Shown: positions 1 to 61,967 of the stretch, in pieces
How the letters are laid out: each line of letters starts with the position of its first letter
Position numbering within the stretch: the first letter of the stretch is position 1
Notes under the pieces: model-generated
Databases searched by the model: none
The model's input: only the letters and a program-made list of their open reading frames with translations
Told to the model about the DNA's origin: nothing
Translations under genes and position numbers: made by a program
Assembly: GCF_900005765.1 (NCBI RefSeq)
Contig: NC_041689.1
Coordinates: forward strand, 992,001-1,056,000
Direction of reading: 5' to 3'
DNA: 64,000 nucleotides
From: Plasmodium relictum
Lineage: Eukaryota > Apicomplexa > Aconoidasida > Haemosporida > Plasmodiidae

Positions 1-1204
1 ATCCAACACAGAAAATGCAACTACTAATCCCAATGTTATTATAAAGGTTAAATATTTATAAGAGATGTTCTATTTCATATTTTACGAATATTTGATTAAT
101 ATATATATATATTTTTTTGTTTTTATAACTTATATTTTTTTCTTTTATAGATACAAAAAAAATGCCTTTTTTTACCAAATTGTCAATATGGAGAAAAATG
201 CCGTTATATTCACCCCAGCGAAAATGTAAAATATTACTTTATATAAATCTAATCATTCATCTTTTATTTTTGTTTATATACACATTTTTTTTTTTATACA
301 GTGTCGAAATTGGCCATATTGTGCTTTTGGACCAGAATGTATTTATATTCATCCAGATGTTCCTTGCAAATTTGGTAAAATGAAAAAAAAAAATTATTAT
401 AGAATTTTATTTTTACGAAATACATTTTATCTTTTTTTTTTTTTTAGGATTATATTGCTGTAACTATTATTGTAATTATTCTCATAATCATGTCAATTCA
501 ACGGTAAAAAAGAATATATATATATATAAAAATTAATTAGTACTTGTATTTTTTATTATGCACATAAAAATATCTTTCATAATTTTTTCTTTGACCACAT
601 ATAGGCTTTACCAGAAGTTGGAACAAATGGATATTTTTTAAATAAAAAATTAATTAATAATTATGATAAAAGTAGTAATAACACGAATTTTGAAGATAAA
701 GTGGCTCAAATTTCAATAAGTATGCCAAAAACACCACCAGAAATGAGAAAAGATAAAAGTAAAAATGAATATAATGAAAATGAGTATATTCAAAATCTCT
801 TAGAAACAGAAAAAGATGAATTAAAAGAGCAAATAAATGAGCAAACAAAAAATAAAGAAAATGTAAATGAATACACAGGAGAACAAAAAGAGGAGAAGGA
901 ATATGAAGCAGAAGATGATTTAGATAAGGAGGTAGAGGAAAACTACATATTTCAGAATAATAGTAACCAAAAAAATTACTCTTGTGATAATGAAGGAAAT
1001 GAAATGAATACAAATATAAAAAATAATGAAAATGAATCAATTAATTATAATTGCTTCGAGATAGTAATAGATCCTGATAACATGAAAGAGAAAAAATTAA
1101 CAAAAGAGAATTTTGAAGAGTCTATTAATAAAACGGATAATAATTATGAAATAAATGACAATGATAATGGCAATAAAGTATATACTATTGAAGATAGTTC
1201 TTAA
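1..1204 (+). CDS. NAB2: NAB2/ZC3H14-type CCCH zinc-finger RNA-binding protein (3' part)
   Basis: Partial gene, 5' end outside the window. I read exons <1-46, 151-225, 302-374, 448-503 and 605-1204; all junctions are GT/AG and keep phase. The spliced protein carries closely spaced CCCH fingers of the NAB2 type (C-x5-C-x4-6-C-x3-H). One runs from KCLFLPNC to CRYIHP in exon 2, one from CRNWPYC to CIYIHP in exon 3, and one starts at PCKFG and is completed across the intron as LYCCNYYCNYSH. Such tandem fingers bind poly(A) and act in nuclear mRNA 3'-end processing and export in other eukaryotes. After the fingers comes a roughly 200-residue acidic, Asn/Glu/Lys-rich tail (605-1204) with no recognisable domain. 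The finger spacing and aromatic residues make the family call good. The symbol rests on that similarity and on neighbourhood as I remember it in P. falciparum. Confidence 0.82.
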
Positions 1205-2011: not shown

Positions 2012-3477
2012 TTAAATGCATGTGGCACCTTACTAAAAGTTACTTCTTTTTGTGAAAGTCATTATAGAGAGATTTGTTGTTCTACAAATGTCTTTTTTAC
2101 CAAAATTTAAATAAATTTTAATTTGATTGAAAAACAGATAAATAGAAGAAGACCAAATCAATCTAAATTAACAAGTAATACAAAGTAAGAAGACAAGCTA
2201 TAATTGTATATCAGATTTTGATAAAAATAAAAAATTAGGTGACCCAGTAACACTTTTAATTTATAATGAGTATATAAAGAAAGAAAATTATAACTCGTTC
2301 ATAAATATAACCAGTATAGATCATGGGAATTATACTTAATTTATAAAATACCATGTTAAATATAAAAATTCAAATAGTGGATTTTCATAAAGAGAAGCAA
2401 CAAGAGTAGTAGCAAGAGCTTGTATAGAGTAATGATTAAATAATTTTTATAATTGTATAATTATTTGATATGCACATTATGTTGGAAATACAAAAACTAG
2501 CGGATGATATAATTCAAGAATTTGAAAAAATCCTATATCTAGATAAGTAATACGTAAGAATGTTTCAAATATAATGAACAAAAAAGTATATTTATGGATT
2601 ATTATAATAATATATATGACTTTTATATATTTTTAATAGATAATATAAAAAAAAAGAAAATATTTCAGATAAGCAAGATTATTTTATAGAAAAAAAAATG
2701 TAACTCATGTGAATTTAATGAGTGAATACATTCACGAACAAGTTGTCCACACACATATACTGTAGTACAAATTTTTTTCTTACATTTTAAAAATAATAAT
2801 AAAAGTAGATGATATGGAAGCAGTAGCTATTTTTGTAATTAAAAATGTTCCAATGGATATAAGAGAATATATTTTTGATAAAACAGGAGCTGAATTTGCT
2901 GAAACTATTTTATCTATTCTAGATATAAAAAGTTTAGAGTTTGGGATTGGCTTTGATGATTAATATATGCTTAGTTCAGAGCATAATGACATCTTTACTT
3001 TATTAAATAAAAAATTAAAATAGAAAAACTGTAAAAATGAAGGAAAAAATAATGAATAAAATGATCAAAATGAAGAGGAAAAAAAAATTAGAATATAATA
3101 TTATAACATTACTTTAAATGAGAATGAAACTAAATAAGTAGAATATTCAAATATGTGCAAAAATATATCTAACAGAAATATTTCAATTACAAAAACAAAT
3201 AGTTATAGTGATATTTTGGCTGGTATTACAGCAGGAAACAATGCAATACCTAGATCAGTAATCAATTATATATATTCAGTTATAATAGAAAAAAGAACAT
3301 ATAATCTTAGAAGTAACTTTTTTAATTTAGGTATAAAAAGAATATACAAACATTTTATTTTACCAAAAATCATCGTTATTAATTGAATCATCTCCTATTG
3401 TTATTGGTGATTTAATTTTAATGAAAATGGTAAAATATGGAGATAAGCACTTTCCATGATTAGTTTTGTATAAATAA
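2012..3477 (+). pseudogene. aroC: Chorismate synthase pseudogene (shikimate pathway)
   Basis: A full-length but destroyed copy of chorismate synthase, which makes chorismate from EPSP. The fragments run in order from N to C terminus. The start region reads GTLLKVTSFCESH (family motif GTLxKVTSxGESHG) and is followed by RRRPNQSKLTSN. Next come LLIYNEYIKKENYNSFINI at about 2250, KYHVKYKNSNSGFS then REATRVVARACIE, SCPHTYTVVQI near 2740, IFDKTGAEFAETILSI near 2870 and NDIFTLLN near 2990. The C-terminal part is DILAGITAGNNAIPRS near 3215 and VIGDLILMKMVKYGDK near 3400. In-frame stops include those at 2108, 2186, 2201, 2337, 2388, 2430, 2433, 2466, 2723, 2961, 3021, 3057 and 3135. Frame changes lie near 2205, 2800 and 3370. 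The active-site GESHG has become CESHY. No start codon survives at the expected place. Position next to NAB2 and AP2Tel matches the P. falciparum gene PF3D7_0623000 as I remember it. Confidence 0.93.
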
Positions 3478-5485
3478 AATATATTAAATGTGTAAAAACA
3501 AAATAAAAAAATCATTTTTTTTTATGTATTCTTGAATATATATAATAGATATTTTATAGATATCTCTTTATTATATTTAAATTTTTTATTATATATATTT
3601 ATTTTTATTTCTATTTTTTAATATTTCAATTTGTAATGATTCAAATAAATATGAGGGGAATTTTATTAAAGTGCTTTAAAAATAAAAATGATACTATGAT
3701 ATTGATATTCTAATGTGTTAAATACAAACGTTTCTTATCAATAAGCAAATAAAGACACATTAGAGAATAAGGATAATTTAATATTACCGAATAAATATGA
3801 CAATGCAGCACTCCAATGAAAAATATTAAAATGAAAAAAAAAAAAGGTATTTTTTTTTTTTTCTCTGAAACCTTGCAAGTCTACTAATAATAAAATTGAA
3901 CACTTAGTATTTAAATATATTACTTAATTTGTGTAATTTTATGTTTATATATTAAATCTAATGCTATTTGTAAAAACAATTGTTTGAATAAAAAAATTAT
4001 TCTCATGAATTATAGCATGAAATTTTAAGATTATTTGATTTATAGGTTTCTCTTGAAAAAAATGGAAATAAAAGGGAAAAAAAAAAAAAAAATTCAAGAA
4101 TATATATAGAAGATATATTTAAAAATTAAAATTATTAAATAAGAGGAAAAAAATATAATTCAAAAAAAGAATACAAATAAAGTTTAAATTTTTTATAAAT
4201 AGTATCAAATTATATCTTATTCATTTTTATAAATATAATACTACAAAAATAAACAGAAATGAAGTTTTTTGAATTTATCTATATGGAAAAACATCTAATA
4301 GAAAGTAAAAAAAAAATATGTAAGTAAATTTATTTTTCCATGAAGATATTTCATTAATGAAATTTGTTTATACAAGATAAATATTGAAACATTAAATGTA
4401 AACATATTAAATATTTAAATAAATGTAAAATAAAAAAATATTAGTTTAAAAATAAAGAAATAAACAGAGAAAAAATAAAGAAGAAAAATATAAAAGGCAT
4501 AAAAGAAATAAGATAAAAGAAAAAATGAACAAAAAAATAATGTAAAAACAGAACGTTGTATTAAGAATGAAAAAGTGGAATATTAGATCATATGTTAATA
4601 ACACAATAAGAAAAAATATAAAATACAAAAGAGATATGAACAAAAAAAGTGAAAAAAAATAAACAAGCAAAAAGCTCTAAATAATAATAAAATAAAAATT
4701 AATGAAATACAGCATGAAATAATAATCAGCAAAATTAATGAGTAAAAAAAAAATAATAGCATTTAATTAAAAAAATTAGAATAAGAAAATAAATTTTCAA
4801 AATATATGTCTTAAGCAGCTTTTTTTATATTTTTATGATGAAAAAAAAATTAAAAAAGAAATTTTTTTTTTTTAATACGCCAAAATAATAGAATGTAATA
4901 AAATAAAAGAGAAAAATATATTAAACAGTTATAATATTATGTGAAATTTTGAGGAAGATACAAAAAAATTACAAGGTTATAATGATGGGTATCATAAAAT
5001 TGTTGAACTGTTTAATAATTTTTATTTTTATTTTATATATTGTTTTAATTTTTTTAACAAAAATATTAAAAGTATCGTTCCAAAAATATTTAAACATTAT
5101 TTTAACAGTAAATATTATTTTAAAATGTAATAAAAAGTATATATTAATGAAAAATTTTATGTGTAATAAAAGGAAAATGTGAATAACAATATATACAGCA
5201 ATTATTATGATGTCATTCATGACAATAATTGCGTGAGAATTTTTAATTTTTTTTTTTTTTTTTTTTTTGCCTAGTCAATAAAAAACTAATAACATTAAAA
5301 ATTTTAATGATTTTTTTATCATTAAAAAAATAAATTTTTGATATATCAAACATTACAATATTCTTCAATGTTAAAAATGAAAAAAAAAATGGCCTGAAGT
5401 ATTCAGAGGAAATAATTTAAAGATTTTAGTTATTAGTAAAAATTTCATCACTTATATGAATAAAAAAAAATATTACTTTTTATAG
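3478..5485. other. Gene-free, AT-rich interval
   Basis: A/T-dominated sequence between two decayed genes. Short open frames (for example 4446-4670 minus and 4949-5182 plus) are Ile/Phe/Lys/Asn strings of the kind AT-rich noise produces, without motif or splice support. I find no RNA gene. Weak coding traces could exist but cannot be supported. Confidence 0.5.
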
Positions 5486-8400
5486 AATTTCTAAAGAACA
5501 TAAAAACATAACACTATAGTTACACAGATATAAAAATAAAACTTCTAATTTTTGTTATCCTATAAATCATTCACCAGAAAATAGAAAATATGAATACAAA
5601 AAAACTAAAATAGAAAAGAATAAAAAAAAATAGAAGAATAAATTATATGAGACTTATATATAACGAAGAAAATATTTTAAAAAAAAGGAAAACATGAAAT
5701 ATTTAATTTACGAACATTTTAATAAAAATACTACAATATTAGTTTTTTTTTTTTTTTTTTCTAAAAAATTGTCTAATTCTATAAAATTAGAAAAAAAATT
5801 TATAGAAAAAATTCACCTAATACATATTTTGAGGCTAATAAAAATAAATTTCAGAAGAATATGTTAAACGAAAATATAAACTATAATAATACATGCAATA
5901 ATATAAAATGATCATAATAATATAAATAATAAATTTATTTCTTTTTAGCAAATTATATTATGCTTATTTAAATAAAAATAATTATATTTTGGATTTAACT
6001 TTATTTAATAAAAGCCATGGTGTGTATATGGAAAATTATTTTGAATTGAAATATTCCTATAATAATATGAACAATTCTTCAAGCATAAAATGAAATAAAT
6101 AAGAAAAAAAAATAACTCTAGAATGGTTAAAAGCAATTAAAAATGATTCGCAACTCTTCATAAAATTTATTACTAAAACTCTTACGAAAAAAAATTTAAA
6201 GTAATCCCAAAAAAAAATTACTACATTAAAAATAAAAAATCGAATAAAAAATGAACCATGCAAAAAAAAAAAAAAAAAAAAATGGAAAAATAAATGGTTA
6301 TATATCAAGAAATATATTTTTTGCTAATTTTTAATAAGTTAAATACTTTTAGAACTTGTTCAAATAAAGAATGTACCAATAAACAAGGATTACAAATAAC
6401 TTTATAAAAAAAAGAAGCATTTTAAAATGAAAAAATTATATATTGCAACGATAATAATACATGTATAAAAAATTTAAAAAAAAAATAGAATTTATGAAAA
6501 GAAATATAATTGTATTAATTTTTCTCCATCAAATGCATCTTAGGATAGGCTTATATGAAAAAAAAGGAAAATTATTCTAAAGACAATAAAAATAACTAAT
6601 CCTTTAAAAATTGTCCCAAAAAGTTTATCTGTTTTATCTAATTTTAATAATAGTGAAGACTATTACATAAACTTTGAAATTTTTTTCTATTGGATTATTA
6701 GAAAATGTAAAAAAAAAAAAAAATATAATTACGTATATTTAGATATTTTAGCTATAGATAAAATAATAGCAAGACACAAGGGAGAGGATGAATATATATA
6801 TATATATAAATGAAAACTGAATATGTTTATTAAAAATATAATATATTTGTATTACTTTACTCGAGAATGTGTAAGGAAAGAAAATAGTATTGATAAAAAT
6901 AGTTGTAAAAAAAAAAAAATATAATAAATTCTTTAATAAATAGTAACATATTACTGAAAAAAATTGTTTCCTATAGGAATGTATTTAAGGAAATATAAAA
7001 GAAAAATAGAAGATATTTTGATTATAAAAGAATGAATATTAAAATTTAAAAATCATAAAATTCAAAATTCTTGACTAAAAAAAGGTAAATCTAAAATAAC
7101 TCAAATATGTTATATTTTCTTTTATTGCATAAATAATTATCCAAAAAGAAAATACGCTTATATTTATGTGATAAAAAAGAACATTATGTAAAAGTATTAA
7201 GTGATTATTATCTGCTATTTTATTTTATGAGGGTTAAGATATACATAATAATTATTTTTCTTCATCCATTTCATTTAATTGGGGTATCTTAAATAATTTA
7301 TAGAATAATAGAAAATTTTTCTTATAGTTATTATAAATGTAATTTAAGAAATTTTAAATTATCTTTTGAAGATGATTACATATTATACTATATTTATACA
7401 AATATACTACTTGACAAAGTTAATTCCATTATAAAACTGAATGAAAAACCATTTTATATTATTAGAAAATATACTTATATCACTATAAGGAAACAAATTT
7501 CTCGTGAAATATATGATGATATATACAAAAATAAATTATCACTTGTTCATTTCTATGAAGAATTTATTTAAAATGAAATAATTTTAGAGTTATAAAAAAA
7601 TATATATTTTAATAAAAAAATGTATAAATGATAAAATTATTCATAAAATATAAAAAAAAAAAAAGGAAAAGAAAAGAAAAATTGCAACTTTCGTTTTTCT
7701 TTTTGATTTCAATATGTATTTGTTTTATCAAAAATGCGATTTTCCTATTTTGAAAACTTACAAAATAAAGTACAAGGTATAAAAAAATTAAATTTTTCTA
7801 ATATTTAATATTATAGAAATAAACTAAAAAATTAACTAAATTTTTTTTATCATTTGAATGAATATAAAAAAATAGTAAAATTTGCGATAGAGATAATAGA
7901 GAGAAGAAGAAAGAAAAAAAGAAAAATAATAATCTCTAATATTTTATCATGCATTATAATTATAATAAGACAAACATATAAGATATATATGAAAAATACA
8001 GTATTGTCCCTAGTACTAATTTGCATAATAAGATACATATGGGATAGTATACCGAGTATCATGTAATTTAATATATGATAAAAGTAAGCATGGCTTTGTA
8101 TATAAAGTAATAACTATATACAATAGATTTAAAAATTTTTTGCTTTCTTTGTAATGTAATTATATACATTTTTACAATACAATTATAAAAAAAAATTATC
8201 CATAATAAAAATTTAATGAAAGAAAAAAAAAAAAAAAATTTACATTGTAAATTTATATAAAATGAAAACTTTTGATAATAAATACCTCCCATCCTTCAAT
8301 ATATTCAATAACATAACACATTTTAGATATAAAAAAATACTTTTTTATTAAATTGAAAATTTTGCAAAAAATTAAATAAAAAAGTATATAAGAAATAATT

Positions 8401-9541
8401 GCAGATAATTATTCTAAAATCATTTAATAATAAATAGATGAGCTTGATCATATATGTACAACAATATTCGAAAAAATAAAAAAGTTCTATTTTTTGCACA
8501 GATACATATTTTTACTCCTTTAAAATAGTGGCTATATTTTCTTTATTATATTGTTTTAAAAAATAAATTTTTGAATAAAAATATTTTTCAAAATACTTTA
8601 TCTTATATATGTAACATAATAAAAAAGAGAAATTATAAGAATAATAGTATAAATGATAATAACAATAATAATAATAATAATGTAATAAAGAAAAATCATT
8701 TAAGTGCAATGCCAACATAGAAATATAAACAAAATTGTTGTAAATAAAAATTATAAGAAGAAAAGCATATAGTGGAACAGCAAAAGAGGTATTTATGCTT
8801 AATAAAATTTAATTCATCCCAAAGAAGAATATAACTAAATGTTAATCTGCTGATGAAATAGAAAAAATTAAATGGGAAAGAATAACCAGTAACAAAGAAT
8901 ATGCATGTAAAAATATATGGCTTTATAAAATTTCTTATAATTTTAAAATTATAAAAAATGAGTTATCTTTTAACAGAAATATATATAAACATCATTTTAC
9001 TAGAGAAATATCCAATTTAATATTTCATGATTTGTCTTATTTTTTGCGTAAAATATTTTACCATGATTCCTTTTACATAAATATTTGTATAATCTATCAA
9101 AAAATGGAATCTGCTAATTACATAAATATATTTTTTTTTGGAATATATTCACTAGTAGATTAGATATTATATAACACATAAAAAATTTTGCCTTTTACAA
9201 AATCTTTTCTTCGTTTAATAAAGACCATTTAATTTTAGTTAAATCTCATATTTCCAAAAATTATTTTAATGAAAAAAAAAGCTCTTTACTAAAATACATT
9301 ATCATGCACATTTTAGCAAATAATACTATTAAAAAAAAAAAAAGAAAAAGCATTTTTTTATATGCAATAATAATATTAATAAAAAAAATTTTAATTTTAA
9401 AAAGGTTATAATGTTCCAAGATTACATAAGAGACATTGTAATAGTAGGTACTTAAAAAAAAATAATTATATTCTCAGTCATTTGTACTATTATATGAATT
9501 ATAAAAATTTAAGATTAAAAAAATATATAAAATACATATAA
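5486..9541 (+). pseudogene. Fragments of decayed protein-coding gene(s), identity unknown
   Basis: Several stretches on the plus strand read as protein when isolated stops are ignored, in changing frames: 5486-5867, 5949-6327, 6487-6813, about 7110-7292, 7293-7571, about 7677-7775, 8846-9163 and 9401-9541. The last three long ones are free of internal stops (93, about 33 and 105 codons). Composition is richer in W, C, H, R and D than the surrounding noise, for example YLDILAIDKIIARHKGEDEY, REIYDDIYKNKLSLVHFYEE and HHFTREISNLIFHDLSYFL. Possible splice signals remain: an acceptor before 5949 and an AAG/GTATAA donor after 7775. I do not recognise the family. In P. falciparum I recall no gene between chorismate synthase and the AP2 gene, so this may be a lineage-specific or elsewhere-lost gene. 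It could also be more than one gene. Confidence 0.55.
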
Positions 9542-11990
9542 CCAGAGAAATGATGAAATTTTTTTTTATCAACATGAAAAACCTTCATTTGAAAAAGTAA
9601 TAAATATTTTATAACTACTAAAGAAAATATATATAAGAATAATTGAAATAATAACATAATATATTTAAAAGACATATATAATTAAAAAAAACTTAAGCAC
9701 CCATAAATTGCATGAGGAAAAACGTTAATAGTAATAACCTTAGTGATACAAGTAATATTTTTTATCAATAAATAGTACCTGAAAAGTACAATATAAAAAT
9801 AAATAAAAAGAAAAATATATATAATATTATTAAATGAAAATATCAAAACAACATAAACAAAAAATTTTAAATTAATTTAATTATTAAATAATAATGAATA
9901 AAACAATATTTCAACTTTGTATATAAGTAAATATTTTAAAAATAAATTCTTATATGCAAAAAAAACAAAAAAAAATTCAAAAATTTAACAAAAAAATATA
10001 AAAAAAAGAAAACATGCATTAAAAAAGAATACTTAAAAAAGAACTAGAAATTTTATACTATATGAATGATTCATTATTTTATCATTTGAGCACTTTTAAA
10101 CTATTTTAAATAGTCAATTAATAAAGAGTATATATTGAAATATATACTAGCTTTATTTCTTATAAAATTACTATATTATAGTTGTATTTTTTAAAATAAT
10201 CATTAATATAAAATAAAGAAAATCTCTGTTATATAGTTTATGTGTTTTAAATTACTAATTTCAATATTTTGCAATAAATGTTTTTATTCACCCACTAGTT
10301 CTATTTATTCACTCAATATAAAGTTTCTAAAAAATATGTAATCTTTGGATAAAAAAAAATATCTAATGAAAAAGAAGATATTTAAAAAAAAAAATTATTA
10401 TTATTTTTTTTATAAAATTATTACACATATTTTACAAGGTTTTCTTTCTATTTATGTAACATATCTTTTTACAAAAGGATATCTATTTCCATGGTAAAAA
10501 ATTGATACAAGTATATTAGTATACAATAAATATACAAATGAATATTAATTTATGTGGCATTCATTCAATGATATCATTTGAAATAGGTCGATAATGTTAT
10601 TTATTGTCCAATAAATTATTTATTATAGTTGAAAGATCCTTTTTTTATTAACTTAAAGTAATATATAATTTTTAAATTAAACGGAAACAAACACAAAAGT
10701 AAAGGTAATAAATTTTCAAAAATTATTTTTTCATTGTACATATTTTTTTATTTTTTTATCGTATTAACTTTTATTATTCTATTTTATACTTTTTTTTTTT
10801 TTTTTTTAAATTATACCTTGTATTTATTGAGGGCATGCAAAAGTGTCTTTTTTTTTATATTTTTTGTGTTCGTTTTAAGTATTATATATACATACATATA
10901 CATAGATTCACATTTTTCTTGTTTTTTTCTATTCTTCAAAATAATTTTGTGTATATTTTTCATAATTATTTTATTATTTTAAAATCATTATAGATATTAA
11001 TAAATATAATTGAATTAAGCATATATCAAGCTCTTAAAGAAAAATTCATTGATTAAAGTTGTGCTATATATATATGATATATCAATGACTTAATTCTATC
11101 TTGAACATTTTTATTTAGAAAATCTTTTTTTTTAATAAACATATTAGATATATTATTAATGAAATGGAAAAAAATTTATGTATAATTTAATACCATTAAT
11201 ATAAAAACAAAGCAATATAAGTGTATCATTAGTTTAATTACTTGTATATTCCCTCTTAATATAATTTGTCGAGTTTTATATATAATATTTTTATTAGAAA
11301 GCATACAGAAATTAAAATAATTTACAGAAAAAAAAAACACTTTAAAACAATAATATAAGTAATATTATTTGTATTTTTTAGCATTTAATCAATATAAATA
11401 TCACTAAATAATATGAAATACAATGAAGAAGATATTATTAAGATTTACTTAGTGAATAATTTTTTAAAATTTAAATATTGTAAAAAATAATTTTAACGAT
11501 TTAATGTTTAATAATTGGTACATATTAGAAGATAATGTCAATTCATATACTATAGTAAATTAATATCAATTTAAAAAGTTCTAAATCATTATTATTATGA
11601 TTTATCTTCATTTTTTTGCTTTATTTTAACGTTTATTTGTGTAAAACTAAAGAAAATAAATTATTATGCTTGTTTGAAAGAAAAAGATAAATTTCGGTTT
11701 TATTTATATCTTGAATAATTTTTAAAAATTTTATATTGATATGTAAACATCTATTTTTTTCTAAATATTTTTTTAATTATATATCTTAATATTCTTATAT
11801 GAAAAAAATTGATATATATATATATATATATATAGAAAAAAAGGAAAATATATTCCAAACTTAAGAAAATAATATTTATTTTCTAGTATAAAAAAACAAT
11901 AATAATATAGTAAATTCTATGATTTTATATGTATATTCTAAGTAATTCTATTTATAAGGGACATATAATGTGTTAGATTAAAAAATATCT

Positions 11991-12030
11991 GAGAATTCAC
12001 ATCACCATTGTTGCTACGTGTGCTGCTTAT
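11991..12030. other. Small GC island in AT-rich spacer
   Basis: About 40 bases with roughly 44 percent G+C by hand count, in sequence that is otherwise nearly all A/T. One plus-strand frame gives a Cys/His-rich run (HHHCCYVCC) that then continues open for about 11 codons. No family is recognised. It could be a coding relic, a small non-coding RNA or chance. Confidence 0.3.
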
Positions 12031-12801
12031 TAAAGTTTGTTTCTTCTATTTTTTAAACCTTATTAAAATTATTATATTTATTTGAAAAATTTTTCTATCT
12101 CATTATTTTTTGTTATTATTTATTTCAGAAGCTATATTATAAATAAGATGCTTATAAATTTATATAATGTTATAGTAAAGAAAATTTCATACTTTTAATA
12201 AGAAAACAAAAGAGCAAATATGAGCAATATTATTGTAGAAATACTTCTAACTTTAATAAGGCATCTGGATATTTCACTTTTTTTTTTTTTTTTAATAATT
12301 TATTGATTATTTTTGATTATTATTATTAAATAAAGGAGTATATTTAAGAAAATTTAATATCCATTTTACTATATTGAGATTTTTGTAATTATAATAATAT
12401 AATATTTTCATTAATATCATATAAAAATTTACTTAAAAAAATATGGATATCTTGAAAAACATTGCCAAAAGTTGTCTAACAAATAAAAAATTAAGCACTA
12501 TATATTAAAAATTAAAGTTTATATAAGGATTTCTTAAATAATTTAAATTTTTTTCATTTCCCTTATAAAAAATTTCATACACACTCTTTTGTAGTATTTG
12601 TTTAACAAATAATTTTGATATGAATGCTTATTTATTTGTTTTTATTCTTATATATATTTAAAACTTTATAAATAAGCATAAATTGTGAAATATTAATACA
12701 TATAAAATATATTACTTTTCTTCCTATACAAAGAGAACTTTAGAAAAACTTATATAATTGAAATTCTTCTGTTAACAAAAAAATAATGAAATATAGCATC
12801 T

Positions 12802-12805
<4 letters not shown>

Positions 12806-12838
<33 letters not shown>
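12806..12838. repeat. (TA)n microsatellite
   Basis: An uninterrupted alternating TA run of about 16 units in gene-free sequence. Confidence 0.9.
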
Positions 12839-12841
<3 letters not shown>

Positions 12842-13759
12842 GTGTTTTAGTGCGCAACAATAATTTTTTAGATGTAAAATTAATTTGAAAGTATATATAG
12901 TTAAATTTAATATTTTTGCATAATTACATATATTATTATAATTTTTTATTTTGAGAAATAACAAATCCTAAATTTTTCTTTATATTTTAATGAAAAAAAA
13001 TAAAAATAAATTCTGTTAATGTAACTTTTTTTTGGTATTGTGATATATTATATGAAAACTTTGAATTTTTTTTTTATATTTTTTAAAAAAATAATAATCG
13101 CATAAAATTATAATTCGTTCTTATTATAAAAAATTTTTTTTTTAATTGTATATTGAAATATTATACAGCGAAATTAAATTTTATCAATAAATATGTAAAA
13201 TTTTTTATTATTTATAAATATTTGTACTATATATTTGCATGCAAAATTATCTGTCTAGATTTTATGCATTATATTATTTAAAAAAATTTTTTTTAATTAT
13301 AATATTGTTAGAAAAAAATTTATATATTAATAAAATAATAATGGGAATGTACAAATATATAAATAGTAAAATTTCTTGATTCTTTTTATAAATTAAATTA
13401 TTACTATCAATAGTACTTAAATTACAATACAGGAAATATATCAAGTATATATGTACTTTGCTTTTAATTTTTTAAGTATTTTTAAATAAGTAGTTACAAA
13501 AATTATTTGTAATATTATTTTCTCTTTTTCTGAATTTATAAATAGAAATTTTCTTTTTTTTCGCATTTGTAATATTTTCTTACATTTTAAGATAATCTTG
13601 AAGATATTTTTTTTTCGTTAACATTTTTTATTTTTGGATGATAATAATGGTATTCATAACATAAAAGAAACTTCATCATATTTTTTTTTTTTTTTAATTT
13701 TATAAGTTATAGCAAATTTAATCAGAAGTAAAAAAATGTAAAAATAAGAAAATACTTTA

Positions 13760-13815
13760 ATCCAACAGAATTAGGAACACTTCTTCACCAGCAATTGCTT
13801 GCTTGATTTAGCGAC
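13760..13815. other. Small GC island in AT-rich spacer
   Basis: About 56 bases with roughly 41 percent G+C by hand count, flanked by sequence of very low GC. The plus frame reads NPTELGTLLHQQLLA, one TGA, then FSDKILEK; the minus strand gives nothing better. I see neither C/D nor H/ACA boxes that I would trust. A coding relic, an organelle-derived insertion or a small RNA are all possible. Confidence 0.35.
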
Positions 13816-16800
13816 AAAATTTTAGAAAAATGATAAAAGAATAAAAAATTAATTATGTTTTATTTCTTAAAGAGAATGATTCCTCCATAAATTAAGGAAT
13901 TTTTAAAATGAAGAAAAATAAAAAAAACAGTTAATGTAAATAATAAGGATATTAATATTATAATTTAATATATTTGCTCCTGTTCATAAAAATGACACTT
14001 TTCTCTTTGTATTTCAGTTTTACCTTTGGTTTTGACATAATTTTTATTGTAAACTATTTATTTATTTATATAAAAAAATTAATAAAACAGTTACATTTAA
14101 TTCTCAAAGTTTTTATATTTGTCAATTTTTAAGGAAGGTATATTGATCATACAAATTTATAAAATAACGTGTGCATGAAAAATAGATTTACCTTTTAAAA
14201 AAAAATAAATAAATGAAATAAAATAAAATTAAATGAGTAAGATAAGTAAAATAAGATGAGCAAAATAAGCAAACGAAATTAATATATTCAAATAAGTAAA
14301 AAAAAGTAAAATAAATCAAATAAATAAATGAAACTTAGTTTTTCCTTTATATATTTTCAATTTTTCATTTAATTATCAGAAAAAAAAAGGTAGAAAAAAA
14401 AAAAAAAAAAAAATCAAATTTAAAAAAAATAGGTTATAACGAAATATCTTTTTTTAGTGAATAAAAATTAAATGATTAAACATGCATAAGCTTTTTTGAT
14501 AAATATTACATTTTCTTTTAATATACCTTACATATATTTTTTCTAATTTTGAAACTTTTTTGTCTTTTCCTACGTTGTAAGTGTATATAATTTTTTTTTG
14601 TTTTTAAACAGGAAAAAGTAAAAAATAACTATATTTAATTTTAAGAGTAAAAAGATAATTCAATACACAGCACAAATTTTTTTTAACTTTTGTGTTACTA
14701 AAAACTTTCTTTAAATAAAAAATGAAGGTTATAACATTTCATAGAAAATTCTAGGACATTTTCTAGGTTTTATTTTATTTATTTCTTATTATTTATATAA
14801 AGATCTCCCAATTTTTTTTTCTTGCATGTAATTTATTAGCTAAAAAATAAAATAAAATAATATTAATATGTATCTTTCATTTAATACTTATAAAAAAAAA
14901 TAAAATAAAATAAAATTATAAAAAGATTGATAATATTACAACCAAAACAAAAAAAAAAAAGAGTTGAAAAATCAAAACTTTAGAACAATGTTATCATAAA
15001 TAGTAGGAAGAGATATAAAGATATTTGTATTTATTTTTTTTTTCTTATGTAACTCAATTTTCATAAAGAATTTCGATGTCTCATTTATAGAATAATGATA
15101 TATATAATACCCATAATTTTTTTTTTTTCCATTTTTGACAGCCTCAATTAATTCTTATTCTAACAATTAGTTTATTAATTTTTTTTTTTTGTGTGTGTAA
15201 AAATTAATTTATTCTCATTTTTTTTTTTTTATATTGTTTTTTTTATAAACAGTATCTAATATATTATAAAGAGTTTTAAAAATATTACTTCTGATTTAAA
15301 TTTTTTTTTTTTGTCTATAAAAATTGTTACCTTGTTGAAACAAAATTTTTCATTTTTCATTTTATTTCATAGAAAATTGTATATTTATACAATTTTTTTT
15401 TTAAATTTATTTTGAAAAAATTACATAATTTGTTATTTCATATACATTTAATATTTTAATGTTTAAAAAAATATTAAATAAAAGTAAAACCAAAAAAATA
15501 TATACATATTTATTTTTATATTTACGTTTATAATGTAGTCTTCGTTTTTAACTTTATATAATGCCAATGCATAAACAATTTTATTTCTTGAAGAATTATC
15601 TAGAAAAATGAGTTGAAATAAGTACATTATATTTATATTTTATATGAGAGATATAACGAAATACGTAAGTACATTTCTTTTTTTATAGAAACGTAAAAAA
15701 TTTATTTTTATTTATTTTTTTCGTTTTTGTTTATATTTAAAATAAAATTATATGTTTATATATATTGTCCTACTCTTCATTTTTTTTATTTTCTTTCATT
15801 TTTTCCTTTTTTTCCTTTCATATATTATTTAAAATACAGTTTACTATTTTTCATCAATCAAATAGTATTATAAAAAATATTTTTATTGTTTTTATCTTTT
15901 TAATAGTATACTTTATACATACAAACAACATATACATTTTTTATTATATTTTTAATAAGATTATAATTATTAAAACGATAGCAATAACAATAATAACTAT
16001 CATTTTTATATTTATTATAGTTCATATTACCTTACCATTTTAATTATTATATATATAAAATTATTATTACATTCCTTTTTTCCTTATTGTATTATTTATT
16101 TTTATTTTTCCTTTATTTTTTTTTTTCTTTTTATGTCTTATTAAATAAAGCATGCATGAAGAAATTAATGAACATTGCGAGTTATTATATTTATATTACA
16201 ATAACTTTTAATTTAAAATATAAAATATTATTACACGATTATTTTATTCTCATAAAAAGTATGTATATATATAATTTTATGTTATTTAAAATAGTTTATT
16301 TTACCATTTAAATGACTTGATTTTTTTTTTTTTTTATATACTTATTATCATTATTTTGTAAATAGAAATTATGCTGGGAAATCATTTTTTATTTTTTTTT
16401 TTTTTTTTTTTTTGTTAAATACCATTTAATTATTTCAAAGAAAAAGTAAATGAAATTACATTCTTTTTTATTTTATGCTAAAAATTTTTTATTATAAAGA
16501 ATAAAATATTTCTTTTTATTAAAGGTCTTATGTACATTCAAAAATATTAATACCTTCATATTTAAAATTATAAGAATTATCATTTATAAAAATTAGAAAT
16601 GAATTAATTTAATTTTATTCTATTAATTTTTCACTTTTATTTTTTTTTTTTTTTAAATTATATAAAGTACTTGTTTTAATAATTATAGAATTTTTTATTT
16701 TTATTATAAAGACATAATATGTAAATTAAAAAAATATAACTCGTTTTAAATATATATGAAAAAACTATTAACACTATATTTTTTTAATTAATAATCTTTG

Positions 16801-16933
16801 TTTATGTCAAATAAATACATTTATACAATATATTAGCAGAAATTTTTTATTTTTTATACTTTTTAATGTACACTTTACAGATAATATGTGCATATATTTT
16901 AATGAAATTTCAAATTTTAGATGTTGTTAACTT

Positions 16934-16938
<5 letters not shown>

Positions 16939-17022
<84 letters not shown>
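16939..17022. repeat. Long (TA)n microsatellite
   Basis: About 42 units of alternating TA, among the longest perfect repeats in the window and self-complementary. It lies about 0.9 kb upstream of the AP2 gene start. Its length in the assembly may be unreliable. Confidence 0.92.
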
Positions 17023-17027
<5 letters not shown>

Positions 17028-17883
17028 GCATATACTAAATATATATATATTTTTAAGTTTATTTTTTATAACTAAATTTAAATGAAAATAAAAGATACCA
17101 CTTATATAAAATAGCTTTAAAGTAATTTTACTCGTTTTGTTTTATTTTATTTTTTTTTTTGTTTCTAAATGAAATTTTGTTTAAACAATCTTTTAAATGT
17201 TTAAGATATTATTTTTCTATAATGTTATTACATTAACTGCATACTTTATATTTTAATATATATATTGTGTTGTTTTATATATATGTATATATTTCTTTTG
17301 CAAGTGTTGAAAACATACACTTTAAAATTATTTTGTTTATTTTATTTATACTTATTTAAAAAGAAACAAAAAATTATTAAAGAATTTTAAACTTTTATGC
17401 TAAGTAACTTTATGATTTATTTAAAAATATTACATATGCATATAAATAAATATATGTCTATATATTCGAAACTACATGTAAATTTATATATTCATATACT
17501 TAAAAAAAATGATGCAAGCAAATAAAGCACAAACAAAAAATTTTTAATATAAAAAAAAGTATAATCTTTTTATAAATTATAAAAGAAACATATGTATATA
17601 CGAAGACATAATTGTGTATGCATAGATGCAATATATTATTGTTTTAAAACACTTGAAATATAAGATTTTTCAAAACAATTTTTCTGCTACAGTTTATTCC
17701 TTTTATAGAATTTAAAAAGATTGTTTTTTATCTTAAACCTTTTTTGATATGTAAAAAGTTTTTTTTAATTAATCAATGATAATTATAAAAAATTGATGAA
17801 AAGAAATTTTTGTGAAAAAACACTTTTCTATACGTTTCTTCTTAATTTATTTATCATTTTTTTTTTTTAATTATCTTATAAAA

Positions 17884-20800
17884 ATGGAAAATTTTCTTAA
17901 TTCATCTTTTGTTTTAGTATAAATAAAAATAAATAAAAATAAATATTTATGAAAAAATAGGATATTTTATGCATATATATATATGTCCACATACCTATAT
18001 TCCTTTTTTTTCATGCAATTAATAGACATTTTATAATATATTACCGCTTTTTACATGCATTGAAATATAAAAATTTTAATAACAAAATATGTTTTTTTTA
18101 TTTCATTTTATATCTTTTTATCTTTTTTTTTTCTATAGAACTTGGATCACAAAAGGAAAAATTTGAAAATTGAAGATAAAAAAACTTCACCAGGTAGTAT
18201 CAAGAGTTGTATTGAAGATTTTTCAATCTTACAGAAAAATAACAATTTGTTTTATGATGAAAATTTTGATAAAAAGCACAATGTATCCAAAAATGTAACA
18301 TCAAACAATATATGCTCTAATTCTGAAAATGAGTATTCGATGAAAAAAAAAAATATTAAATCGGTTAACTTAATTCCAGAAGATTTCAACAATAATAATA
18401 ATAATGCATATAAAAATAATATTCTATCAAATAGTAATTGGTTTTTAACAAATAAAGAAACAAGTGAAACTTTTAAAAATGAAGTGAAATGTGATGAGAA
18501 TAAAAATATTATGAATAATGAATATTATGATAAAAAAAGCGACTTGAACAAAAATATCGAAAAAAAAAATATTACAAGTGAAATTAATAAATATTGTAAT
18601 TTCAACACTATAAAGAATAACAGTTATTCAAAAAAAGTTAAAGATCAAGTTACGAGTTATTTTCGCGCATGTAAGCAAAGAAATAAAAAAAATAATACAT
18701 TGCATTTACTCGATATGCGTAAAAATAGAAAAAATATGATTTGTAATGGTTTTATGAATAAGTATCGTTTGTATAAAAAAATGAACTTTAAGAGTAAAAA
18801 TATTAAAAAAAAAAAAAAATTTCTAAAAAAGTATACAATTGATAATAATATAAAAGAGAACAACAATTATAGTAATTTCAAAGATAATTTTATCAAAGGC
18901 AAAAATGATTCTGAACAATTTAATGAGAATACAAATTTCGATTTTTACTGCAACGAAGTAGAAAATAATAAACTTTTAGATGACGATTATTTAAAAAATA
19001 TAGATAGAAAAAAAAATATAAATTCAAAAATAAAAAAAAATACTTTTAATTATCTAAAAACTGAAAATACTAAAAAAGATAAAAAAGAAAATTTAACTAT
19101 AGATGATACTAACAATTTACTCAAACTAAGCTCTTCCAAATGTATTAATTGGGAAGAAAAAAATAATAATTTTAATTCATCATTTCATAAACACGATTAT
19201 ACAAGTGATAATTTTCCTCTTCATTTAAAAAAAGAACAAATATATGTCGAACTTTTTAATAAAAAAAAAGTAAAAAAAAAAAAAAATAAAATAAAAAGAA
19301 GAAACAGTAAAAAATTAAGTTCCACAATGATTATCTCTAGTGATAAAGAAAAAGAAAAAATTAATATGTTTAATATGTTGAATGAAAATAAGAATGTTGA
19401 TGTGTATACTGACAATGATGAGAAACAGTATGAGCATGCAAAAAAAAAAAAAAATAAAGAAAAAATAAATTTAGATCAAAAAAATCTTCCTAATAAAAAT
19501 ATAAACGAAATCATTAATAATCGAGAAAAACAGTTAGAATATTTTAAAAGGAATAATCAAAATGGAAAATTAGAAAAAAAAAAATTTTCAAAAGAAAAAA
19601 GCAGAAGAATATTTGACAATCAGGTAGATATAACATTTAATTCTGGTACTTATAAAAATACTTTAAATATAGTTAAAAATGAAGTACAACAAGAAGAAAC
19701 ATGTTGGAATAAAAAGGATAGCAAAATAAACTTCTACATAAAAGAAAACAAAGACGATTTATCAGATAAGAAAAAAAATGGATTAGATAAAATGCATCAT
19801 CATATTATTCAAAATTCATTAAAAAATCAGGAAAATTCTTCAATTTCTATAATAGATAACAAAAGCAAAAAGAAAGAAATGAATTACACGCCACTATATG
19901 AAAACAATTATTGTAAAAAGAAATATATCTCAAACAATAGCCCTATTTTATTAAAAAACATCAAAGTAGAATCAGAAGAAAATGAGAACAAGAATAATCA
20001 GGAGAATGAAAAGGATAAAGGAAGTAAAAATGAAATGGAAAAAAACTATCAAAAAAAAAAAAATTTATTTACAGAATTCAGTAAACAGAACAATGAAAGT
20101 GCTGCAGAGAATATAAATGAAATTATTTCAAAGACAAATGAAGGAAAAGAAGATATTCATTATAATAATATAAAAGAAAAACAAGCAAATGCATACATTA
20201 ATAAAATAATAAAAGAAAAAGAGAAAACAGAAGAGAAAGAAGAAAAAGAAAATAAAGAAAAAAATAGTAAAATTTACTTCAAAGTTAATGAATTAGTCAA
20301 AGAAAGAGGAAAGATTAATGAAACAAAAGAGAATATTGATAATTATATTGAAAAAAATAAGGAAAAAGAGAATAAAAAAGACGAATTTAATAGTTTTAAA
20401 AAAGAAATAAATGATTATGATAAAAAAGGTGAAATTAATGAGGAAAATAAAAATGAAAAAAATTTTGAAAACGATGAAAGATACACAATAAGACAAGAAA
20501 ATAAAATATTTAAAAATCATATATCATCAGAAATAGAAATTATAGCAAATTTAGAAAAGATAGATTATAATGAAAAATTAAACGAACAAAATAAAAAAAA
20601 TTTTAATAAAGAAAAAATGGAAAAATTAAAGAGAAATGATGATATAGTAATTGAAAAAAATAATTTAAAGAACAAAAATAAAAGAGATAATGATTTAGAT
20701 AAAAAAGAAACACCTTATAGTATTGATGAACATAATAACGGAAATGAGGATGGGATTATTAACGAGGAAATCCAAAAGTATATTAACTATATAATGGAAA

Positions 20801-21681
20801 ATGATGATATTGATATTTCTAAAATAAATATAAAGGCTAAGAGGAATCATTTTAAAATAACATTTTTTCTAAATCAATATATATTAAAACACGAAGATTT
20901 TAAAAATAGTGATTTATTGTTTTGCTTTGGTGAATCAAGCGAAGAAGAAATTCTCTCAGAAAAAAATTCAAAGAAAGACAGAGAATTGGAATTCAAAAAA
21001 AACAATGAACTTCCAATAAATAAAAAAAAAGTAAGACAACAAAAAAATAGAAAAATAAATTACGATGCTGTTGATACTATGTGGCAACCCCATTTTCATC
21101 CTCATAATCAAGAATTTCGAGTTAGATATAGATATAAAGGAAGTATGAGGCTAAAAACAATTTCTTGTAAATATTTTGGTTATTTAATTAGTAAAAAAAT
21201 ATCCATTTTATTTTTATTCAGATGGATATTATGTGGAAAGTACATTGCAGAAAAGACCAAAAGATCAAGACTAAGTATTAGTGATATAAATGAAAATAAA
21301 TTACAAGAGCTTTTAACAAAAAAAAAAAAAAAAAAAATGTCCCACGAAAATGAGGAAGAAATAAATGAAGAAAGTAAAGAAAAAAATACAAAAGAATTTT
21401 ATAAAGATATAAATAAAATTAATAATTTTCTTTTAAATAACTATAAGGATGAGAATTTTCTTAATAAAATAAAAAATATCATAAACAATTACGATAGCAA
21501 ACAAAACAAGGAGGATTTATTAGACAAGTTGAACGAGTGCTTTTTAGATAATCTTTTTACAATTAAAGAAGAAACATCTTTAAAATATTTAAAGAATGAA
21601 AAAAAAATAGAGCATTATAATAATAATGATAATAATATTCATAATAATAATTATACTGATAATAATAATGATAATGGAGAT

Positions 21682-21760
<79 letters not shown>

Positions 21761-24700
21761 TCAACAACAACAATAATAATAATAAAGATATGAATAATAA
21801 TATTAATAATATTAATAATAATAATAATAATAATTATCGTAATAATAATAACAATAATATTAATAATAATATTAATAATAATAATAATAATAATAATCAT
21901 AATAATAATAATCATAATCATAATCATAATTATAATAGTAATAATAATAATAATAATAATAGTAGTAATAATAATAATAATGATAATGGTAATAATAGTA
22001 ATAATAATAAAAATTTTAATATTAATAATAGTAATAATACTAATAGCAATACAAATATTAATGCTTATACCAATATTAATACCAAAACTAATATTAGTAC
22101 TGATGCTGATACTAATTATAATAATAATATTAAAACTATTATTACTAATAATAATAATGATAAGGATAATAAAAATAACAGTATTAATAGCATTGGTAGT
22201 AAAAGTAATAACGATAATAATGGTGTTAATAATATTAATACTTGTAATCGTTATAATGATAATAATAATAATGTTATCTATAATAATAATATTGATAATA
22301 TTAATAATAATAATAATAACAATAATAACAATAATAATGAAAAAGTCATTTTTTTCAATCCATCTAGAAAAGAACATCCTTTAAAAGGTATCAATAATAA
22401 TATAAATAAAGAAAATATAAATGCAATAAAAAAAACATGTAGTAAGCAAATATTAAAAGATGTAATAAAAACAAAAGGAAACAAATCATATAATAAGGAT
22501 ATACTAAATAATTTCCATATATCTGATTGTGACAGTAAAGAATTAAATAATGAAAGAAATAAAAATTGTATAAATAATAAAACTAAAACACAGAAAAGTA
22601 GTATAACTAATTTTGATAGTTTTCAAAGTAATTGTAGTAATAATAGTAACAAATATAATGATTACGATAACAAAAATGATGTCATTAAAAATAATAGTAT
22701 TATTAATGAAAATAAAAGTATTACAGACAATTCTGATCCTTTTAAAAATTCATCTCTTAATAATTTAAATCAGCCTTCTTTAAATTTAGAGAAATTATCC
22801 AGTAAAAATGAAATCAATGAATTTAATAACTCACTAATAGAACTAAAGAAATCAATATATATAAAAAACAAAATTAACAATTTAGATAAAATAAAGTATT
22901 CTAGTATTAATGACAAATTTATAGAATTATTAAATAAAGAATCTGTTTTAAATAGTTTTAAATTGAATAATAAAACATGTCATAAAAATTCTAATGGAGG
23001 TAATGCTTATTTATATGCTATTTACTGTGCAAATAAATATAATATAAGCAAAAACATTTCTTATGATGTTAAAGATAACTCAGAAATTTTAAATGACTCT
23101 TATTATTACAAAAATCAGAAAAATATGTTTTACAACAGTAATAACAGTAATAATACAAAAAGATTAAGTAACGTTTCAACATGCCCAAGTTTATGTAAAA
23201 ACAGTTCTTCGTTATGTTCGATTTTACCAGATGAAAATTGTTGTATATGTTGTTCTCTATCTAATAAAAAAAATAAATGCAATAAGGAAGTTATTAACGA
23301 AGAAAATTATTTAAAAGATCAATTAAAAAAAAATCAATTAAATTTAATAGAAACATGTGAATTATTTCATTCGTTCTCAGACAAGTCTTCAAAGTTAAAT
23401 TCTTCAGAAAAAAATTTATTTTATGAAAAAGAGGATAATAATGTAATTTATAGAGAAAATAATAATAATAACTTTTTTCCGGATAATTTATCATATGATT
23501 ATATGAATAAAATCATTTTTAAAAATGATAATAAAGTTAACAGTGAATGTGATTATAAAAATTGTAATAACAATTTTATCTCATCTAATGATTCTTTGTC
23601 TCCTAAAAATGATATTAAAAATAATAAAAAGGAAAATAAAAATTATATTTTTAGTACAAAAAACAAAACCTTTTCTAATGAGAAAATAAATAACTTTAAT
23701 GAAATCTTTCAAGAAAGTAAAAAATTAAATCAAATAAAATGTGATACTTTTAATAATATCATTAAGATTGTATTACCTGAGAGAAAAGATGATTCAAATT
23801 GTTTTTACTGTTCTTATATTGACAATATAAATGATGAATTTAAAAAGGAAAACAAAAATGTATGCACAACGGATAAATGTATAGAGGGAGACAGTGTTCC
23901 GTTTTTTCAGAATAATAAGATGGATGTCGTAAAAGAAAATAAAAATAATTATTGCTGTGAATATTGCAATTTTTATAATAAAATTTTTATTTTAAATGAA
24001 GAGAAATTGTTAAATGAAGGAAATAATGAAAATAAAATGAATAATGAAATAAAAAACTATGAAACGAATGGCAACGAAACTACCTTAAAATATAGCAAAA
24101 AAGATATTGCTGAAAGTAAAGAAAAATTCAAGATTTACATTAATGATAATGGGGACGAAGATGCTAATTATAATAATGAGAATAATTGTGTTACTGGTAA
24201 TGATATTAATAAAGTATATATCGATAATGAAATGAAAATAAAGGATATATATAATTTTGAAGGAAAGGATTATAAAATAAGCAGAGGAGATGATGAGATA
24301 AAATGTAGTATGAATAACGATATTGAAAATAGCATAGAAAAATTTATTAAAAATAATATTAATAATAAGAAAAGGAGAATAATGAATATTTTTTTTCATG
24401 ATTTATTTGACTCTAAAAAAAATAATAACATTAATAAAGAAAATCACAGTGTTATATCTGAAAATGTAAAAGAAAAAGAACAAGAAAAGAATAATATAAT
24501 CAGAAATTGTCAATATAAAAAAAACAATTTAAATGAAGAATATCAAAGCATGTATTACAATAATGCATATAATAATTTTTTGAAAAAAGATATTAAAGGA
24601 GTTGAAAATAACTACAAAAATAAACTTGAAGCTTATAATAAATCAAATTTAATTATTAACGAAAAAAGTTTCGAGTTAATAAAAAATTTTATTAAGGAAG

Positions 24701-25188
24701 TTAAAGAAAAAAAATACATTAATAGCAGAGATAATAATAATAATAGTGATAATGAAAATAATCATAGAAATAATAATAATGAAAATAACATTTTATGTTA
24801 TAATGGATCATTAAAATCAAATTTCAATAATTCAAAAAACGGAAATAAATTTAATAATTTATTAATTAATAATTCTACAAATAATAAATGTGGCAACATT
24901 GAAGATAATAGAATAAAAAAATTACCCATATCTTTAAATAAAAAAATGAAATGCCAAGAAAATATAATACAAAGTGGTAACAACAATTTAAACGAAAACC
25001 AAGATAGATATAAAAATAAAAATCATTTAAAAACTGAAAATTCTTCATGTGTAATTGATAATCTTAATTTTTTAAAAGAAAATAATATAAATGATTATAT
25101 TAAATCATTTTACCAATTTAAAAATAACATTTTTGATTCATGTAATAAAAAAGATGTTTGCTGTAAGCAACATATTTTTGAAAATTAA
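17884..25188 (+). CDS. AP2Tel: AP2-domain DNA-binding protein, AP2Tel-like
   Basis: I read two exons. Exon 1 (17884-17916) encodes MENFLNSSFVL and ends at a GTATAA donor. Exon 2 (18139-25188) starts after a TATAG acceptor in phase 0, because the long frame itself begins without an ATG (AAC TTG GAT). The protein is about 2360 residues. Near residues 985-1050 lies a single divergent AP2-like segment: MWQPHFHPHNQEFRVRYRYK, then a basic strand and SCKYFGYLISKK, resembling the three strands and following helix of AP2 domains. The rest is Asn/Lys/Glu-rich. Residues about 1165-1410 are an Asn-dominated tract encoded mainly by AAT (21604-22340). Scattered Cys pairs (CCICCS, CCEYCNFYNK) occur at 23.2-24.0 kb. 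Being next to LeuRS and the chorismate synthase locus points to the orthologue of PfAP2Tel (PF3D7_0622900 from memory), a non-canonical AP2 protein reported to bind telomere repeats. Telomere binding here is inferred from orthology only. Confidence 0.78.
21604..22340 (+). repeat. (AAT)n-rich polyasparagine tract
   Basis: About 245 codons, mostly AAT with some GAT, ATT, AGT and CAT, inside the AP2 gene. It includes one nearly pure AAT run at about 21684-21760. On the opposite strand the same repeat reads as polyisoleucine and leaves a long but meaningless open frame. Length is likely to vary between isolates. Confidence 0.92.
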
Positions 25189-61885: not shown

Positions 61886-61967
61886 GACAGTTTGCCCGAG
61901 TGGTTAAGGGGTTGGACTTGAAATCCAGTGGGCTCTGCCCGCGCAGGTTCGAATCCTGCAGCTGTCG
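61886..61967 (+). tRNA. tRNA-Ser (anticodon UGA)
   Basis: An 82-nt class II tRNA. The acceptor stem GACAGTT pairs with AGCTGTC (one G-U) and is followed by discriminator G. The D region has GCCCGAGTGG and GTTAAGGGG. The anticodon loop CTTGAAA shows anticodon TGA, and a long variable arm (GGGC/GCCC) identifies serine. The T arm is CAGGTTCGAATCCTG. No intron. Internal A box and B box (GGTTCGAATCC) fit RNA polymerase III. It reads UCA codons, common in these AT-rich genes. Confidence 0.97.

What the first reader, a model, noticed from the sequence alone, without database searches (positions are those of the whole stretch)
2012..3477. Chorismate synthase is a full-length wreck: the shikimate pathway is broken here
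Almost every conserved segment of chorismate synthase can be followed from the N- to the C-terminus. The gene nevertheless carries at least 13 in-frame stops, three or more frameshifts and loss of the GESHG active-site motif (now CESHY). P. falciparum relies on this enzyme for folate precursors, so a parasite with only this copy cannot make chorismate and should need host p-aminobenzoate or folate. I have a general memory that avian malaria genomes show loss of shikimate genes, so the loss itself may already be described.
Basis: partly seen in the sequence, partly recalled or inferred. Interest (0 to 1): 0.85.

Follow-up and report, generated by a model that had tools for sequence, protein, structure and literature searches.

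The report
Dead chorismate synthase in bird malaria
A bird malaria parasite carries a long-dead copy of a gene for making an aromatic building block; the loss was already published, but the intact-looking genes around the break suggest the parasite still makes folate from p-aminobenzoate taken from its host.

Summary
Window 2012-3456 is a full-length chorismate synthase (CS) pseudogene: against 13 Plasmodium CS proteins it shows 17 in-frame stops, 4 frameshifts, no start codon and CESHY for GESHG, scoring 731 against at most 46 in 24 control stretches. It is the only CS match in the 22.6-Mb assembly.

The loss is already in print: Boehme et al. 2018 (PMC5880244, passages) report two shikimate-pathway pseudogenes and a missing AROM in avian Plasmodium. 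Assembly size points to P. relictum (inference).

Added here: (1) the pABA synthase gene is also dead, with its chorismate-binding core missing. (2) GTP cyclohydrolase, PTPS, HPPK-DHPS, folC and two folate/biopterin transporters look intact in their matched frames. [quoted passage not shown] the genome fits folate made from host pABA. (3) A COQ2-like prenyltransferase is kept, so this natural chorismate-null bears on the source of the Plasmodium ubiquinone ring.

The parts
2012..3456 (+). Chorismate synthase (aroC) pseudogene, full length, profile columns 1-514 of 525; start codon lost, 17 in-frame stops, 4 frameshifts, 34 profile columns missing
   Evidence: two-reference check (15 stops, 5 frameshifts)
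2051..2065 (+). Former GESHG motif, now CESHY (Gly14 and Gly18 in P. ovale numbering changed)
3138..3386 (+). Longest stop-free remnant of the pseudogene (82 codons plus stop), with the ITKTN..DILAGITAGNN stretch that matches the CS C-terminal part
   Evidence: only a weak CS match on its own, E 0.072
1..1204 (+). Upstream neighbour: gene of several short exons with C..C..C..H patterns (CCCH zinc finger, read by eye); its last exon ends at 1204. The name NAB2 is recalled, not from a call
   Evidence: sequence; ORF; last exon has no Pfam family

Best explanation
The feature is a genuine, unitary (no functional copy found) chorismate synthase pseudogene in an avian Plasmodium, most likely P. relictum. 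The gene lost its function and has been decaying since. With it went other parts of the pABA arm: the two AROM-type domains tested are undetectable and aminodeoxychorismate (pABA) synthase has lost its chorismate-binding core. The pterin arm (GTP cyclohydrolase I, PTPS), HPPK-DHPS, folC and two folate/biopterin transporters stay open in their matched frames. The best-supported physiology is that the parasite takes pABA from its hosts and still builds dihydropteroate and folate itself; once pABA was reliably present, chorismate had no other essential use and its genes decayed. Shown: the two pseudogenes, the domains without a match, and the open frames. Inferred: pABA uptake, continued DHPS activity, and the order and cause of the losses.
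For: CS pseudogene anatomy and controls. Single CS match in the assembly. pABA synthase pseudogene at G000:C7:762093-763187 between S-AdoMet synthetase and PGK, 59-61% identical over its open GATase piece to two Plasmodium pABA synthetases. The local alignment covers columns 1-413 of 984, score 685 against 40-47 in 6 control stretches; a separate C-terminal match scores 96.5 and ends near 763428 (no separate control was run for that sub-profile). It resumes near column 939 at 763216, so about 525 codons are missing within about 30 bases. Chorismate_bind, EPSP_synthase and DHQ_synthase have no match in the genome, while each rings in 14, 14 and 11 of 14 control genomes. Frames without stops: HPPK-DHPS 616 codons, aligned in three stretches over residues 26-612 to a solved HPPK-DHPS, 5z79, E 3.4e-241 (recalled as P. 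vivax); GCH1, PTPS, folC, two BT1 transporters. At the stop density of the CS wreck the 616-codon DHPS frame would be expected to carry 21.8 stops and has none. Published: the loss in P. relictum and P. gallinaceum (PMC5880244, passages); CS not needed in P. berghei (PMC6763611); Plasmodium mainly takes pABA from its hosts and is said not to use preformed folate as hosts do (PMC9241536, passages).
Against: No expression, uptake or enzyme data were available. Whole gene models were not built: folC was matched over positions 2-332 of 400, and the first third of HPPK was not confirmed. Folate transporters look intact too, so preformed folate may also be used. The negative AROM searches have prokaryote controls only and cover two domains; a diverged remnant could escape, as the pABA synthase pseudogene escaped PF00425. 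Early P. gallinaceum sulfadiazine reports conflict in part (PMC9241536), and Taylor 1957, seen only as cited, found that high dietary pABA lowered P. gallinaceum parasitaemia (PMC12834005).
Confidence: 0.85

Rival explanations
1. The stops and frameshifts are assembly or sequencing errors in a working gene.
For: AT-rich short-read assemblies do have homopolymer errors (general knowledge).
Against: 15-18 stops by three counts, plus 38 of 86 widely invariant residues changed, stopped or missing, while other genes in the same assembly run open for hundreds of codons. A second gene of the same arm is broken independently. The loss is also reported for a second species sequenced separately (PMC5880244).
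Confidence: 0.01
2. This is a dead duplicate and a working chorismate synthase lies elsewhere.
For: The assembly has 514 contigs and may have gaps.
Against: One candidate and one match in the assembly; EPSP synthase, DHQ synthase and chorismate-binding domains without a match and pABA synthase destroyed. No avian species among the 13 Plasmodium-named CS proteins in the 120 listed of 3500 hits.
Confidence: 0.02
3. The whole folate route is relict: the parasite lives on host folate, and DHPS and the pterin arm are simply later in the queue to be lost. [quoted passage not shown]
For: PMC5880244 states it; two BT1 folate/biopterin-type transporters look intact; avian red cells are nucleated and nutrient-rich (the paper's argument).
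Against: HPPK-DHPS, GCH1, PTPS and folC frames are open; with the CS stop density they would carry about 22, 14, 6 and 14 stops. HPPK-DHPS still aligns over most of its length to a solved Plasmodium-type enzyme. In the paper's main text the terms DHPS, dihydropteroate, pterin, aminobenzo, pABA and salvage do not occur.
Confidence: 0.12

Closest known systems
Shikimate-pathway loss in P. relictum and P. gallinaceum (Boehme et al. 2018, PMC5880244, passages and abstract seen)
   Same: The loss itself: two enzymes of the pathway are pseudogenes and AROM is missing, in a 22.6-Mb P. relictum assembly like this one.
   Different: The main text does not contain 'chorismate' and the passages do not name the two pseudogenes; it concludes that folate cannot be made de novo, which the open pterin arm and DHPS frames seen here narrow to the pABA half. 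Supplements were not seen.
Laboratory chorismate synthase mutants of P. berghei (Choudhary et al. 2018, seen only as cited in PMC6763611 and PMC6832408)
   Same: A Plasmodium viable without chorismate synthase, with pABA available from the host.
   Different: Here the loss is natural, pABA synthase is dead too, and two AROM-type domains have no match.
Plasmodium chorismate synthase family (PF01264)
   Same: Full-length collinear homology; 128 of 224 aligned Plasmodium-invariant residues kept.
   Different: No start codon, 17 stops, 4 frameshifts, broken GESHG motif.

Membership tests
Unitary pseudogene of chorismate synthase | Collinear homology to the functional family over most of its length | tested here: met
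   Columns 1-514 of 525; score 731 against at most 45.8 in 24 control stretches
Unitary pseudogene of chorismate synthase | Disabling lesions that no plausible intron structure removes | tested here: met
   17 in-frame stops spread over columns 33-406 (repeated), 4 frameshifts, lost start, changed conserved residues
Unitary pseudogene of chorismate synthase | No functional copy elsewhere in the genome | tested here: met
   1 candidate, 1 match in the assembly; the assembly may be incomplete
Unitary pseudogene of chorismate synthase | Same chromosomal place as the working gene in relatives (synteny) | tested here: inconclusive
   Neighbours read, but no annotated relative was available; the P. 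falciparum order is recalled only
Functional chorismate synthase | Intact open frame with GESHG and the other invariant residues | tested here: not met
   CESHY; 38 of 86 widely invariant residues changed, stopped or missing
Aminodeoxychorismate (pABA) synthase, functional | Glutaminase domain plus chorismate-binding domain in an open frame | tested here: not met
   Aligned part has 3 stops plus 2 in inserted codons and 5 frameshifts; PF00425 has no match in the genome; about 525 codons missing
Folate synthesis from supplied pABA | GCH1, PTPS, HPPK, DHPS and folC present without stops | tested here: met
   for the matched frames; HPPK N-terminal exon seen only as a 65-aa ORF without a Pfam hit; whole gene models not built
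Folate synthesis from supplied pABA | Uptake of pABA and activity of DHPS | not testable with these tools
   Needs live parasites

The most novel reading that the evidence does not exclude
Avian Plasmodium is a natural chorismate-null, pABA-dependent folate maker. By the genes tested here and the 2018 report it has dropped the route up to pABA, keeps the pterin arm and DHPS under selection, and keeps a COQ2-like 4-hydroxybenzoate prenyltransferase. Its ubiquinone ring therefore cannot come from chorismate and must be taken from the host or made by another route, as proposed for P. falciparum (PMC6763611). This would explain the pABA and 4-hydroxybenzoate interplay reported for P. gallinaceum in chicks in 1957.
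Probability: 0.6. Interest if true: 0.6.

Novelty: already known. Interest (0 to 1): 0.38.

Why it matters
The pathway loss itself has been in print since 2018. What matters is what is left behind: with pABA synthesis gone but the pterin arm and DHPS apparently intact, bird malaria should be a clean natural test of pABA salvage in Plasmodium. The published phrase that it cannot make folate de novo would need narrowing to the pABA half. A parasite lineage with no chorismate but a kept COQ2-like gene also bears on the unsolved origin of the ubiquinone ring in malaria parasites.

Tried and rejected
Considered and rejected: assembly error, a dead duplicate with a live copy elsewhere, and a gene split by introns (17 stops spread across aligned columns). 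PF00425 found nothing; the fungal-type pABA synthase model TIGR01823 then gave three weak places, one with stops on C7, which the third protein search identified as pABA synthase. I read the other two as the GATase domains of carbamoyl-phosphate synthetase and GMP synthase from frame length and recall; they were not checked.

Dating: at sites identical in two reference species the CS wreck keeps 196 of 336 and the pABA synthase wreck 135 of 207 (Fisher p 0.12); stops 15 of 480 against 5 of 362 codons (p 0.11). No difference in age can be claimed. Working CS keeps 0.85-0.88 of such sites in three other Plasmodium species but only 0.52 in Toxoplasma, so lost identity alone does not prove decay; the stops and frameshifts do. 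A crude simulation gives about 0.15-0.2 neutral substitutions per site since CS died, once the 0.85-0.88 is allowed for; it is model-dependent, and the avian baseline was not measured. Whether P. relictum and P. gallinaceum lost the gene once or twice could not be tested: I had no P. gallinaceum DNA. Rows dropped: P0015, a Plasmodium-like CS from an unnamed source, was left out of the profile; P0017 (P. cynomolgi, lacks an internal piece) was left out of the invariant counts.

Weak points: given only the matched stretches, the two BT1 proteins, the COQ2-like protein, GCH1 and PTPS score below NCBIfam cut-offs, though BT1, UbiA, GCH1 and PTPS pass Pfam cut-offs.

Literature: 10 of 10 searches used; several lists were capped (25 of 30, 12 of 308 and 12 of 267 papers). 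Apart from PMC5880244, no listed title or abstract start treated folate genes of avian Plasmodium. I read passages of PMC5880244, PMC9241536, PMC6832408, PMC6763611 and PMC12834005, and the abstracts of PMC5880244 and PMC6763611. Supplements could not be opened, so Supplemental Fig. S8 of PMC5880244 may already show the kept genes.

Full report
What is there. The window is G000:C11:992001-1056000 of a 22,602,028-base, 514-contig assembly. Boehme et al. 2018 give 22.6 Mb and 498 scaffolds for P. relictum and 23.8 Mb for P. gallinaceum (PMC5880244, passages), so P. relictum is the likely source; that is inference from size, not a tested identity.

The observation. Pfam PF01264 rings once in the assembly, at window 2199-3377, with 18 stops in the frame. 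Against a profile of 13 Plasmodium chorismate synthases (P. ovale, brasilianum, gaboni, chabaudi, gorilla clade G1, yoelii, berghei, gonderi, fragile, knowlesi, inui, coatneyi, cynomolgi), a frameshift-aware alignment spans 2012-3456, columns 1-514 of 525, with 480 aligned codons, 17 stops, 4 frameshifts and 34 missing columns; 4 of 4 penalty settings agree. With two references only, 15 stops and 5 frameshifts are counted. The score is 731 against 39 for the reverse strand, at most 45.8 in 24 other window stretches and 37.3 in 24 shuffles. The first codon is TTA and GESHG reads CESHY. Of 226 columns invariant in 12 Plasmodium sequences, 224 are aligned and 128 kept; of 86 residues invariant in 18 wider sequences, 48 are kept. 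G+C is 22% in the wreck and about 16% in the flanks tested, as expected for a former coding sequence that has not yet drifted to background.

The pathway. There is no second CS match, and no EPSP synthase, 3-dehydroquinate synthase or chorismate-binding match, while those searches ring in 14, 11 and 14 of 14 control genomes; the controls are prokaryotes, and the other AROM domains were not searched. A fungal-type pABA synthase model gave a weak place with two stops on C7. Its 118-codon open piece is a GATase domain, 61% and 59% identical to Plasmodium gonderi and P. malariae pABA synthetases. The local alignment covers columns 1-413 of 984 at C7:762093-763187 with 5 frameshifts and 3 stops plus 2 in inserted codons; a separate C-terminal match ends near 763428. 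The homology resumes near column 939 at 763216, so about 525 codons with the chorismate-binding core are missing within about 30 bases. The flanks are S-AdoMet synthetase, PGK and glutamine synthetase; P. falciparum has the same neighbours as far as I recall. This is probably the second pseudogene meant by Boehme et al.; their main-text passages do not name it and the supplements were not available.

What is kept. Stop-free frames were found for HPPK-DHPS (616 codons), GTP cyclohydrolase I (381), PTPS (176), folC (393), two BT1 folate/biopterin transporters (469 and 416) and two UbiA-type proteins (493 and 461), one best matching heme o synthase and one 4-hydroxybenzoate prenyltransferase, the latter below that model's cut-off. 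HPPK-DHPS aligns in three stretches over residues 26-612 to a solved enzyme, 5z79 (recalled as P. vivax). These are matched frames, not full gene models. If these genes had been free to decay as long as CS, they would be expected to hold about 22 (HPPK-DHPS), 14 (GCH1), 6 (PTPS) and 14 (folC) stops; the frames have none. So selection on them most likely outlasted the loss of chorismate.

Mechanism. Shown: the pABA arm is broken at two genes and the AROM-type domains tested have no match, while the pterin arm and later steps tested are open. Inferred: pABA comes from the host, and chorismate had no other essential use. Published work fits: CS is not required by P. berghei (PMC6763611, PMC6832408), Plasmodium mainly takes pABA from its hosts (PMC9241536), and the main role of chorismate in P. 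falciparum is thought to be folate synthesis (PMC6763611 abstract). [quoted passage not shown] the paper's main text contains none of the terms DHPS, dihydropteroate, pterin, aminobenzo, pABA or salvage.

Ubiquinone. PMC6763611 (abstract and passages) argues that the P. falciparum ubiquinone ring may be made by a route not yet identified rather than from chorismate. A chorismate-less lineage with a COQ2-like gene fits that. [quoted passage not shown] gallinaceum blood stages; PMC12834005 reports that high pABA lowered parasitaemia and 4-hydroxybenzoate reversed this. Both fit dependence on host 4-hydroxybenzoate, but the original was not read, and a parasitaemia drop with pABA is not what a simple pABA shortage would predict.

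Age. At sites identical in P. gonderi and P. brasilianum CS, the wreck keeps 196 of 336, while working CS of P. ovale, P. gaboni and P. berghei keeps 0.85-0.88 and that of Toxoplasma 0.52. Simulation and stop density together suggest about 0.15-0.2 neutral substitutions per site since death. The pABA synthase wreck is not distinguishably younger (135 of 207 kept, p 0.12).

Verdict. A confirmed, ordinary kind of feature (unitary pseudogene) in a loss already in print; interest lies in the retained half of the pathway and the tests it allows.

Noticed in passing
window 3478-18141: About 14.6 kb without any ORF of 120 aa or more, 12-18% G+C in nearly all 1-kb bins, between the CS wreck and a 2348-aa ORF (18142-25188) that has no confident Pfam family.
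   Followed up: partly
L010 (G000:C7:758300-768000): pABA synthase pseudogene between S-AdoMet synthetase and PGK; glutaminase half decayed, chorismate-binding core missing.
   Followed up: yes
L019 (G000:C11:1560712-1561386): COQ2-like 4-hydroxybenzoate prenyltransferase kept although chorismate apparently cannot be made.
   Followed up: partly
window 38028-39944: ORF with a VTC domain and a weak, below-cut-off DUF202 match at its end.
   Followed up: no
window 61886-61967: One tRNA gene, the only Rfam match in the window at gathering scores.
   Followed up: no
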